From Apostichopus japonicus (Eukaryota > Echinodermata > Holothuroidea > Aspidochirotida > Stichopodidae), in the NCBI RefSeq assembly GCF_037975245.1, contig NC_092574.1, positions 13,856,713-13,920,712 on the forward strand: a stretch of 64,000 nucleotides of DNA. Direction: 5' to 3'. The notes below the pieces were generated by a model. The model saw nothing but the letters and a program-made list of their open reading frames with translations, was not told the origin of the DNA and did no database searches. A program made the position numbers and the translations under genes. Below are positions 46,201 through 49,200 of this stretch, piece after piece; positions within the stretch are counted from its first letter, which is position 1, and the number at the start of each line of letters is the position of its first letter.

Positions 46201-49200
46201 ATGTGACCAGTTAAGTTCGGTATTCTTCTAATATACATATTCGTCTACATAACAGAGAAGTGCCAGATTTGTAGGTTGTAGCAAAGATATTCTACATCCG
46301 AAGGTGCCATATCTTTGGTTGTAGTGTCCCGTATGGAAAGCCATTTTAACATTTAATCGGGAATTTTAGATATCTGAAATTGTTTCTTATTTCAGATATC
46401 TGAAATTGAATTCGAGATATCTGAAAGTGAATTCGAGATATCTAAAATAGATTTCGAGATATCTGAAATTCTAATTCAGATATCTGAAACTGAATTCGAG
46501 ATATCTGAAATGGAATTCGAGATATCCGAAATTGAATTCGAGATATCTGAAATTCTATTTCAGATATCTGAAATTGAATTCGAGATATCTGAAATTGAAT
46601 TCGAGATATCTGAAATTGAATTCAAGATATCTGCAATTCTAATTCGAGATATCTGCAATTGAATTCCAGATATCTGAAATGCATATGCATAAATTCCCGA
46701 TTAAATGTTAAAATGGCACGTATGGAAAGCCATTTTAACATTTAATCGGGAATTTTCAGATATCTGTAATTGAATTCGAGATATCTGAAATTGAATTCGA
46801 GATATCTGAAAATGAATTCGAGATATCTGAAATTGAATTCGAGATATCCACAATTCTATTTCAGATATCTGAAATTGAATTCGAAATATCTGAAATTGAA
46901 TTCGAGATATCTCGAATTCAATTTCAGATATCTGAAATTGATTTTAAGATATCTGCAATTATTTGTAGATATCTTAAATAAATTGGAGATATCTGTAATT
47001 TAATTTGAGATATCTGAAATTATTTCGAGATATCTGAAATTCCTTATTAAATGTTAAAACGGCTTTCCATAGTATGTTCCGTCCCGTACGCGAAATTATT
47101 TTTCCCACTTCGACGCGGCCACATGGGCGTGGCTTATGAATACGTCAGAGGCCGGCAAGTTTGTGACTTCGACTTCGAGCTCTTACGTATATAGCTCTTT
47201 AATTATATACTCAGCTAATATACTCAGGCCCAATATACTCAGGCCTAAGACATGACTTCATGAGATCCATGATGATGTGCGACTGCTTCTCCCAGTCAAT
47301 CGGGTCTTATTGGAGCTCTTGAGGTAAATTCCATCACAAAATCAAACTGTGTTTGTTTATTAGATGTGTTATGAACCTCCCGTGTCAGGAAAAGTTTGGA
47401 AAAGAACCTCCCGTGACAGCAGGGTCTGGAAAAGTTATAAATGAACCTCCCGTGGTATTGATTATTACACTTCATATTACACCAGGTAGGCCCACTGACC
47501 TTTCAATGCTAAAAACCTACAAAGATACATGTATTGTATTGTGCCCCATATTGTTTTATCCATCATTCTAAATTATTTGTTCATTTATAAATGAACCCCC
47601 TTTTAAACTGCAGTAAGGAGCCTACGTGCTTTCATCATTAGTTTACGTACGCTACTGGGTATTGTTACGGACTTGAAATATTCTACCCATTTTATTAAAC
47701 AGTTGTCACTTGCGTCTGTATTAACTATAACCAGGGAGCTGTTACTGTTAGAGTAGCAGCTCCCTGCTATAACTATGACTAAATAGCAATGTCCCTCTGT
47801 ACTATACTATTTATTGTACTGGTACGTGTACTAGAATCCCTGACATGTAACTTAATTGAGAACTTTCAGCACCCAAACAAACACCCGAGAGATGTCACTG
47901 CATAGTCTGTGACGTAGACCAATAAGCCGTAACAACGACCGATAGTCCACGCCCATTATGCTAATATGGCCGCGTCGAAGTGGGAAAAATAATTTCGCGT
48001 CCCGTACTCGACTACAGTTTTCTTTACACGTACGTATGGCAAGCCGTTTTAGTTTTTATTCTGTATTTGATGATATCATCAAATATTTGATGAAATCACC
48101 AATTCAATTGCTGATATCACCAATTATTTGCTGATATCAGCAAATAATTGGTGATACCAACTAATATTTGATAATCATCACCAATTGTTTGATGATATCT
48201 CACATCAATTGATGATATCAGTAATTGAATTGGTGATATCAGCAAATGCATTGCTGATATCATCAAATGATTGGCTGAAATCAACAAATCATTTGTTGAT
48301 ATGTATATACCACTAATTCAATTGCTGATATCATCAATTGATTTGCTGATATCATCAGATAATTGGTGATATCATCAAATACATAATTAAAACTAAAACG
48401 GCTTGCCATACGTACGTTTTGCTCATGGGTATATACCAACGAGGTAAATGAATCTGGAGAAACTATCACACAGTAAATACGCGCGTACGCGCGTACCATG
48501 TATGGAGGGTCATGTGATGTGTTCCAGGGTGGTACTAATATACTACTCTCCCTATTACGCATGATGATTTCACCCAACTAGTACGTAAATGTGTTTGCGT
48601 GCTTAGAGCAGCAGACGACACCCGTTACCTAGCAATAACTGTGCCTGTAGCCTAACGTGATAGCTATATTCCCGTCGAGCAGCATTAGGCTCTGTTCCAT
48701 GGAGAATTCCGTGGTTGCACTGAACTAAACATTTCCCCATATTTCCCATTTCTACATTCACTTAGAGCAAGTAGTAATAACGTTAAGCCATATGAGACAA
48801 AGCTTGCCCCTAGAGCTGTATTAATAAGTAAGATTATGTAGAAAGCCTGCCTTCATTCAAGAGAATACGGTTGAACGTTAGCATATTAGCACTATTTCGT
48901 AAGCCTGAAGTACCAGTACCTTCTTATGCCGTTAGTTCCCATGTCCGAACCGACCAATCTTTCACGAAGTCACTAACACTGTTCTCGAACTGCTACAGAG
49001 AAATATCAGTATAGTACCACCCTGGAACACATCACATGACCCTCTATACATGGTACGCGCGCACCCAATTGACATGAATCCTCCAGATTCATTTACCTCG
49101 TTGGTATATACTGGTATTCGAGGCATCGAACTATTATCGTTACTCATGCATACGGGTACTCGGGACCTTGGTCCTCGCCAGATGCTGATCTCTTTAATAT

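What the first reader, a model, noticed from the sequence alone, without database searches (positions are those of the whole stretch)
46332..48410. Elements sharing terminal repeats but carrying different arrays of GATATC palindromes
Elements A/B (46332-47071) and C (48035-48410) start and end with nearly the same inverted repeat, TATGG(A/C)AAGCC(A/G)TTTTA. Their cores are two different satellite-like arrays: about 21-bp GAGATATCTGAAATTGAATT units in A/B, and about 20-bp GATATCANCAAAT units in C. Both arrays are built from short self-complementary units centred on GATATC. Conserved ends and architecture with replaced cores suggest a transposon class whose cargo is an expandable palindromic array. 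Transcribed from the intron, the core would fold into many short hairpins. Seen: ends, units, palindromes. Inferred: mobility and function.
Basis: partly seen in the sequence, partly recalled or inferred. Interest (0 to 1): 0.7.

Follow-up and report, generated by a model that had tools for sequence, protein, structure and literature searches.

The report
Jumping genes carrying family-specific palindrome arrays
Several related cut-and-paste jumping genes in what is probably a sea cucumber genome keep the same end tag but carry different arrays of roughly 21-base palindromes, and the array types seen go with different versions of the jumping enzyme, so the arrays are probably landing pads by which each enzyme recognises its own DNA.

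Summary
A/B (46332-47071) and C (48035-48410) are non-autonomous DNA transposons. Their 22- and 17-bp ends occur 509 and 571 times in the host assembly, reversed controls 0. Copies show 6-bp target duplications (26 perfect among 69 end pairs; control 0 of 642) and paralogous empty sites (four, three of them clean). A third array (ACTTAAGT) uses the same ends. Long relatives carry multi-exon integrase-like transposase genes (PF24764), and array type goes with transposase: AGATATCT (A/B) with L059, TGATATCA (C) with L052/L053/L061, ACTTAAGT with L054/L056. TATGG..CCATA termini, 6-bp duplications and the transposase fit the published IS3EU superfamily. In these three types the first dyad usually lies 40.5 bp from the tip, units mostly repeat every 20-21 bp, and half-sites share one conservation profile. 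Most likely mechanism: arrays are multiplied operator sites for the cognate transposase's HTH domain. Binding is untested; some spacings are off the grid and some duplicated elements lack an array at one end. Known kind, new variant.

The parts
46332..47071 (+). Element A/B: non-autonomous type I element (left end, array, truncated inverted left end, second left end, array, right end)
   Evidence: 86% identical over 324 bp to the left end of transposase-bearing copy L059
46332..46348 (+). left end TATGGAAAGCCATTTTA
46368..46675 (.). type I array, first block, 15 AGATATCT cores; first dyad 40.5 bp from the tip
46691..46720 (-). truncated inverted left end plus ACG spacer (internal junction)
   Evidence: sequence; same junction, with point changes in L027 and L029, in L022, L023, L025, L027, L028, L029
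46721..46737 (+). second, internal left end
46758..47035 (.). type I array, second block, 14 cores
47055..47071 (-). right end TAAAACGGCTTTCCATA
46326..46331 (.). left flank GTCCCG; the only candidate partner seen lies at 47081-47086, 9 bp outside the right end, so no clean target duplication
48035..48410 (+). Element C: non-autonomous type II element, array only
   Evidence: 82% identical over 359 bp to the left end of transposase-bearing copy L052
48029..48034 (.). 6-bp target duplication CGTACG, left copy
48411..48416 (.). 6-bp target duplication CGTACG, right copy
48071..48374 (.). type II array, 13 TGATATCA cores; first dyad 40.5 bp from the tip
48436..48588 (+). paralogous empty target site: the same repeat carries a 5,065-bp type II element with CGTACG duplication in L006
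   Evidence: 123 of 135 identical across the joint

Best explanation
A/B and C are non-autonomous members of two related families of IS3EU-like cut-and-paste DNA transposons. Each end has two modules. The outer 17 bp (TATGG..TTTTA) is nearly constant and is presumably where the DDE transposase cuts and joins, with a 6-bp staggered cut at CGNNCG-like targets (duplication and target shown; chemistry inferred). Inside it, usually starting 40.5 bp from the tip, lies an array of palindromic sites, mostly one per 20-21 bp (about two helical turns), whose core differs by family. The array is most likely a multiplied operator for the HTH domain of the family's own transposase: a GRP arm reading the outer A/T bases in the minor groove and the HTH reading the 4-bp core half-site in the major groove, as in Hin recombinase (the Hin groove contacts are recalled). 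Many sites would raise local transposase concentration and give each family private recognition while the catalytic tip stays shared. Because the unit is a palindrome, an array is nearly its own reverse complement, so left and right arrays can exchange in either orientation, homogenise and expand; array-only elements such as A/B and C would arise by internal deletion. Shown: ends, duplications, empty sites, transposase-bearing copies, pairing of array with transposase, spacing, site anatomy. Inferred: binding, dimerisation, function, exchange, deletion origin.
For: Shared ends genome-wide. 26 perfect 6-bp duplications among 69 end pairs of any nesting; 21 of 29 loci hold one; control 0 of 642. 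Four empty sites, three clean. Transposase copies with matching arrays: type I L059; type II L052, L053, L061; type IIb L063+L067; type III L054, L056. A type III copy with both ends 22,667 bp apart, type III arrays and CGGCCG at both flanks. L052 and L053 are 99.7% identical over 11,255 bp, so movement was recent. Catalytic tree ((II,IIb),I),III follows the cores TGATATCA, AGATATCT, ACTTAAGT. First dyad at 40.5 bp in 28 of 35 type II, 35 of 40 type III and 24 of 35 type I ends, the other 11 type I at 41.5. Spacing 20-21 bp in 368 of 419 (I), 573 of 677 (II), 526 of 656 (III). Similar conservation profile in I, II, IIb and III: positions 1-4 high, 5 low, 6 intermediate to low, 7-8 high. Same array type at both ends in 23 of 26 perfectly duplicated elements. 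HTH exon of L052: HTH_7 (resolvase) E 1.7e-5; the profile of five HTH exons finds Hin 1hcr with GRP on GRP, E 0.016; predicted HTH helices, pLDDT 83-86 over residues 11-50.
Against: No binding or transposition was measured. L016 and L018 have perfect duplications but no type III cores in the half or 700 bp next to the right end, so arrays at both ends are either not required or were lost after insertion. Off-grid spacings exist: 25-28 bp in 23 of 419 (I), 26 bp in 15 and 36-38 bp in 42 of 677 (II), 26-29 bp in 60 of 656 (III), and a phase statistic did not single out 10.5 bp among periods 10-11. Mirror covariation is mixed: type III +-5 z 6.4 and +-9 z 4.4, IIb +-5 z 2.4, type II +-5 z -4.2. 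Units were picked by their core, which inflates core conservation. Counting distinct 60-bp ends, the 40.5-bp position holds for 11 of 20 (II), 24 of 29 (III) and 13 of 22 (I, 8 more at 41.5). Of 15 transposase loci, 5 (L055, L057, L058, L065, L066) gave no clear end with array in the stretch read; L062 and L064 have only a few units. Only about six lineages support the co-divergence. Right ends of L059 and of L052/L053 were not reached. Hin is only the third PDB hit of the profile, after 2lvs (E 7.8e-7) and 8vd6 (E 1.4e-6); Foldseek had nothing at E 0.001.
Confidence: 0.67

Rival explanations
1. Passenger satellites: the arrays have no function in transposition. Short repeats near the ends expanded by slippage and unequal exchange and were copied along.
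For: Arrays vary in length and contain unit duplications and off-grid spacings; some duplicated elements have no units near one end (L016, L018).
Against: Different core sequences in three lineages share a similar site anatomy, a period of mostly 20-21 bp and an anchoring distance; neutral satellites would not be expected to keep dyad symmetry.
Confidence: 0.19
2. Host factor platform: the palindromes bind a host DNA-binding protein (transcriptional activator, silencer or chromatin factor) and not the transposase.
For: Palindromic sites at regular spacing would equally suit a host dimeric factor (inference).
Against: Arrays are present in elements without genes and at both ends, and the core changes with the transposase lineage within one genome, where host factors are common to all.
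Confidence: 0.1
3. Structural role: palindromes act as hairpins or cruciforms in DNA, or as transcribed hairpin RNA that feeds small-RNA silencing.
For: The consensus unit is a palindrome or nearly so in types I-III and the arrays pair with themselves as inverted repeats; type III +-5 and +-9 show positive mirror covariation.
Against: At the variable positions +-5 and +-6 the two halves of a unit are complementary no more often than chance in type I (86 of 345 against 83.9; 104 of 345 against 106.2), and less often at +-5 in type II (128 of 625 against 175.3). No Rfam match in 45000-50000.
Confidence: 0.05

Closest known systems
IS3EU superfamily of eukaryotic DNA transposons (Repbase; PMC10045372 and PMC12730594, passages read)
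   Same: TA..TA termini, TAYGG..CCRTA in the fungal TET-bearing members described; usually 6-bp target duplications; DDE integrase-like transposase
   Different: The passages read mention no subterminal palindrome arrays; here the arrays are long and lineage-specific. Fungal TET-bearing members carry alpha-kinase and TET/JBP genes; these copies carry a HECT-like gene
Galileo / Foldback elements of Drosophila (PMC3688188, passages read)
   Same: About 40 bp of terminal sequence shared between families, family-specific long inverted repeats with tandem repeats, transposase DNA-binding-domain sites inside them, little cross-reactivity between the Galileo elements tested
   Different: P superfamily with a THAP domain; long repeats with three sites found, not dozens of 21-bp palindromes
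Tetris foldback element of D. virilis (PMC4079207, passages read)
   Same: No coding capacity seen, long inverted repeats with internal tandem repeats that seed satellite arrays
   Different: 220-bp repeats, 8-10 bp duplications, suggested Mutator
Sea urchin TU foldback elements (name and details recalled; PMC4079207 mentions foldbacks in the sea urchin)
   Same: Echinoderm foldback elements with short tandem repeats in the inverted repeats
   Different: Recalled 15-bp repeats and 8-bp duplications; no sequence compared here

Membership tests
IS3EU superfamily | 6-bp target site duplication | tested here: met
   26 perfect pairs among 69; 21 of 29 loci with a pair; cross-locus control 0 of 642; empty sites. 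Window C yes, window A/B not adjacent
IS3EU superfamily | TA..TA termini, TAYGG..CCRTA in described fungal members | tested here: met
   TATGG..CCATA ends were the search criterion and coincide with the duplication boundaries; definition from passages
IS3EU superfamily | autonomous copies encode an integrase-like DDE transposase | tested here: met
   PF24764 in L052 (2.9e-74) and L059 (3.1e-74), inside or beside the same ends; catalytic residues read by eye, splicing not tested
IS3EU superfamily | transposase falls in the IS3EU clade next to GingerRoot and IS481EU | not tested
   no IS3EU reference protein was at hand; that PF24764 covers IS3EU is inferred
IS3EU superfamily | the window copies themselves encode a transposase (autonomous member) | tested here: not met
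   no reading frame of 100 aa or more between 46332 and 48410; they are filed as non-autonomous by ends and array shared with L059 and L052
Foldback-like elements (as a structural class) | long inverted repeats built of tandem repeats | tested here: met
   inverted arms of about 436-547 bp made of 20-21 bp units in L001-L006
Galileo (P superfamily) | P-like transposase with THAP domain; duplications longer than 6 bp (recalled) | tested here: not met
   6-bp duplications; HTH_7 and PF24764 and no THAP among the 10 proteins scanned
Ordinary satellite DNA | arrays without linked termini or insertion evidence | tested here: not met
   linked ends, duplications and empty sites

The most novel reading that the evidence does not exclude
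A two-part address system: within one genome, related IS3EU-like transposons keep one catalytic tip but diverge by turning over a roughly 21-bp palindrome code in step with their transposase's HTH domain, so that each array is a private self-recognition platform of up to some 28 operators per end. Satellite-like palindromic arrays would then be fossil records of transposase specificity, and families become independent (and immune to each other's parasites) by changing the array core.
Probability: 0.48. Interest if true: 0.75.

Novelty: new variant of a known kind. Interest (0 to 1): 0.6.

Why it matters
It ties satellite-like palindrome arrays to a transposase group that was probably active recently, and makes an open question testable: why do foldback-type elements carry long internally repeated ends? 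Here several natural transposase/array pairs sit in one genome with nearly the same outer tip, so specificity can be tested by swapping arrays and HTH domains. It also gives a source for dispersed short satellites in a (probably) echinoderm genome and describes a 22.7-kb copy with a HECT-like gene.

Tried and rejected
Autonomous partner, dead ends: the 3-kb and 9-kb type II copies read for frames (L001, L009-L012) have no transposase reading frame by eye; L009 holds a nested non-LTR retrotransposon by its frames. The IS481 profile NF033577 (accession recalled) gave 68 matches, many in polyprotein-length frames; the three loci fetched from them, L019-L021, look like LTR retroelements by their frames (by eye) and have no TATGGNAAGCC end. 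PF24764 (accession recalled, name confirmed) succeeded; its 14 control genomes without a match are a weak control.

Chance or unlinked satellites: rejected. Hairpin role: not consistently supported. The pooled covariation of type II at +-7 and +-8 (z 3.3 and 4.1) shrank to 1.9 and 0.3 when shuffled within loci and with IIb set apart. No RNA family match in 45000-50000.

The A/B copy does not itself show a clean 6-bp duplication; four loci with an end pair (L003, L017, L031, L035) have no pair within one mismatch. L035 pairs a type III-like end with a type I end 2.7 kb apart and has no duplication. One of the four empty sites (L050 in L049) has a 7-bp gap 2 bp from the joint.

Structure search of the HTH (mean pLDDT 73.8, pTM 0.49): Foldseek had no match at E 0.001 or better; VIA best Z 5.7 (GcrA DNA-binding domain), Mos1 4.9-5.0, Hin 3.8-4.1. 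This only says DNA-binding HTH.

Print: searches, 77 of the open-licence library listed no paper whose title or abstract start is about IS3EU subterminal palindrome arrays; one search listed 25 of 43 papers and 15 of 18. One search asked for three of five terms, and none of its 9 papers holds both HECT and IS3EU. Repbase could not be searched, so these families may be deposited there.

Full report
Observation. A/B spans 46332-47071 and C 48035-48410, with ends TATGG(A/C)AAGCC(A/G)TTTTA at 46332, 46721 and 48035 on the + strand and at 47071 and 48410 on the - strand. A/B holds 29 AGATATCT cores with 22 of 28 spacings exactly 21 bp; C holds 13 TGATATCA cores with 10 of 12 spacings of 20-21 bp (TRF). 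The rest of the window (61,850 bp) holds 50 and 57 such cores, and perfect 10-bp palindromes number 10 in A/B (740 bp) and 5 in C (376 bp) against 2.67 per kb elsewhere. A and B are parts of one composite: its middle is a truncated inverted left end joined by ACG to a second left end, and the same junction recurs in other copies, including L025 with three left ends.

Host. The window lies in G000, 671,581,487 bases in 35 contigs. Size and scaffold count fit the chromosome-level assembly of the sea cucumber Apostichopus japonicus, 671.6 Mb, 23 chromosomes, 34 scaffolds (PMC10344927, passages). This is an inference from assembly statistics only.

Mobility. The 17-bp end of C has 276+295 exact matches, the 22-bp end of A/B 241+268; the reversed controls have none. 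Among the first 100 or so places listed in each call, many are paired in inverted orientation, at about 0.4, 0.55, 0.9, 1.9, 3.1 and 9 kb. In 29 loci with at least one end pair (28 fetched loci and the window; loci were taken from the best DNA hits, the first listed pattern hits and the transposase hits, not at random) there are 69 pairs of any nesting; 26 have identical 6-bp flanks and 5 more differ at one base; 21 of 29 loci hold a perfect pair and 25 of 29 one within one mismatch; flanks of different loci agree in 0 of 642 comparisons. Among 23 distinct duplications G stands second in 20 and C fifth in 17, a CGNNCG-like target. C itself has CGTACG on both sides. A/B does not: its left flank GTCCCG recurs only 9 bp outside the right end.

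Empty sites. Joined flanks of four elements match uninterrupted paralogous sequence with one copy of the duplication: L006 in the window at 48436-48588 (123 of 135), L009 in L010 (117 of 122, then a further short match), L049 2617-4490 in L045 (159 of 160), and L050 2247-4679 in L049 (147 of 163, but with a 7-bp gap 2 bp from the joint). Three are clean. So the elements insert as units at the TATGG..CCATA boundaries.

More array types on the same ends. Copies with the C-type end also carry a third array, ACTTAAGT units of mostly 20-21 bp (among others L013, L017, L018, L034, L036, L037, L039, L043, L045, L047-L051). A TGATATCA subtype with extra ATTCGAAT and ATGTACAT palindromes is called IIb here (L042, L044, L067). 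One further element has TATGGCAAGCC, a CTCGTC duplication and 22-bp units (L055 5812-6285).

Transposase-bearing relatives. PF24764 (rva_4, integrase core domain) has 148 matches in G000 and none in 14 control genomes. I read 15 such loci (L052-L066). Eight have a TATGG end and a clear array upstream of the transposase exons: L059 type I; L052, L053 and L061 type II; L063 (end in L067) type IIb; L054 and L056 type III; L060 a 44-bp repeat that reads as two 22-bp units. L062 and L064 have an end with a few ACGCGT units. L055, L057, L058, L065 and L066 gave no clear end with array in the stretch read. One type III copy has both ends: left end at C1:12260970 (L036), right end at C1:12283636 (L054), 22,667 bp, type III arrays at both ends and CGGCCG on both flanks. 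CGGCCG is a favoured target, so coincidence is likelier than 1 in 4,096; no other TATGGNAAGCC end was seen in L073 or L054, and C1:12261721-12263999 was not read. L052 and L053 are 99.7% identical over 11,255 bp from their left ends, which argues for recent movement; their right ends and that of L059 were not reached. A/B matches the left end of L059 (86% over 324 bp), C that of L052 (82% over 359 bp).

Genes. The transposase is spread over exons: a helical exon, an HTH exon with G-R-P near its start in the I-III lineages, an exon with a WHxDxH-like motif, and the PF24764 exon. Splicing was not tested. The HTH exon of L052 matches HTH_7 of resolvases (E 1.7e-5, above its cut-off), that of L059 HTH_23 and HTH_7 just under their cut-offs. 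A profile of five HTH exons finds 2lvs (E 7.8e-7) and 8vd6 (E 1.4e-6) first, then the Hin DNA-binding domain 1hcr with the GRP arms aligned (E 0.016). The predicted fold is three short helices and a longer fourth, pLDDT 83-86 over residues 11-50, mean 73.8. A HECT C-lobe gene lies on the strand opposite to the transposase in L052 and L054.

Array and transposase go together. The catalytic tree joins II with IIb (96/96), then I (93/92), then III (84/86), with L060, L062 and L064 as a separate group (97/98). This follows the cores: II and IIb share TGATATCA, I shares GATATC, III differs. The pairing covers about six lineages, so it is suggestive, not a statistical proof.

Anatomy of the site. 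Counting distinct units (I 170, II 207, IIb 33, III 327), information per position from the dyad is 1.3-2.0 bits at positions 1-4, 0.06-0.39 at 5, 0.52-1.13 at 6, 1.5-2.0 at 7-8, and variable at 9-10. Choosing units by the core inflates positions 1-4, not the contrast between 5-6 and 7-8. The spacing between cores is 20-21 bp in 368 of 419 (I), 573 of 677 (II) and 526 of 656 (III); the rest includes half-turn classes (25-28, 26 and 36-38, 26-29 bp), and a phase statistic was about equal for periods from 10 to 11 bp, so 'helical phase' is a reading of the period, not a test passed. Of 124 ends (some loci overlap), 110 have a I-III core within 130 bp; the first dyad is at 40.5 bp from the tip in 28 of 35 type II, 35 of 40 type III and 24 of 35 type I ends, the other 11 type I at 41.5; among distinct 60-bp ends the figures are 11 of 20, 24 of 29 and 13 of 22 with 8 more at 41.5. 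By eye the first dyads of L055, L060, L062 and L064 lie at 39.5-41.5 in the leaders printed. Among the 26 perfectly duplicated elements, 23 have the same type at both ends; L016 and L018 lack type III cores near one end and L055 5812-6285 is outside the three types.

Mechanism. The same half-site frame in different sequences, about one site per two helical turns, a usual fixed distance to a constant tip, and an HTH with a GRP arm fit a transposase that binds its own family's palindromes as a dimer, arm in the A/T minor groove, HTH on the core. Galileo is the tested precedent: families share about 40 terminal bp, differ in long repeated ends, and the THAP domain binds three sites in these ends with little cross-reaction (PMC3688188, passages). 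A hairpin role is not well supported: mirrored variable positions pair no more than expected in type I, less than expected at +-5 in type II, and more than expected at +-5 (z 6.4) and +-9 (z 4.4) in type III and weakly at +-5 (z 2.4) in IIb.

Classification. TA..TA termini and usually 6-bp duplications characterise IS3EU in PMC10045372 (passages); fungal TET-bearing members end TAYGG..CCRTA (PMC12730594, passages). The families here meet these and have an integrase-like transposase; direct comparison with an IS3EU reference protein was not possible. The arrays, their lineage specificity and their usual fixed geometry are what I did not find described (searches; Repbase not searchable).

Noticed in passing
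47090-47998: A separate 909-bp element between A/B and C with 35-bp inverted ends (GCGAAATTATTTTTCC..) and a 9-bp duplication GTCCCGTAC (47081-47089, 47999-48007). The 40 copies scored (of 198 candidates, the window copy included) are full-length or nearly so at 97-100% identity, so it was recently active. Mutator-like by duplication length only.
   Followed up: partly
L052:8621-9712(-); L054:97-1182(+); L068:2642-3715(-): HECT C-lobe genes (PF00632, scanned in L052 and L054; L068 by eye) lie beside the transposase in these elements; role unknown, perhaps the counterpart of the alpha-kinase gene of fungal IS3EU.
   Followed up: partly
L010-L012 (9 kb copies): Non-autonomous type II copies carry about 4 kb of internal DNA without a long reading frame, flanked by a direct duplication of about 1.07 kb.
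   Followed up: no
L049, L050: Nested clusters of type III elements, several with their own 6-bp duplication.
   Followed up: partly
G000 C17:15-25 Mb: Many broken PF24764 transposase fragments cluster on contig C17, perhaps a pericentromeric graveyard.
   Followed up: no
window 31808-41254 (-), 57283-57807 (-), 6229-6588 (-), 11033-11728 (+): Host gene exons: NIDO, TIG and VWD domains on the minus strand (perhaps one nidogen/mucin-4-like protein), a beta-alanine-activating enzyme propeller (below its cut-off), CAF1 ribonuclease and GEMIN8.
   Followed up: no
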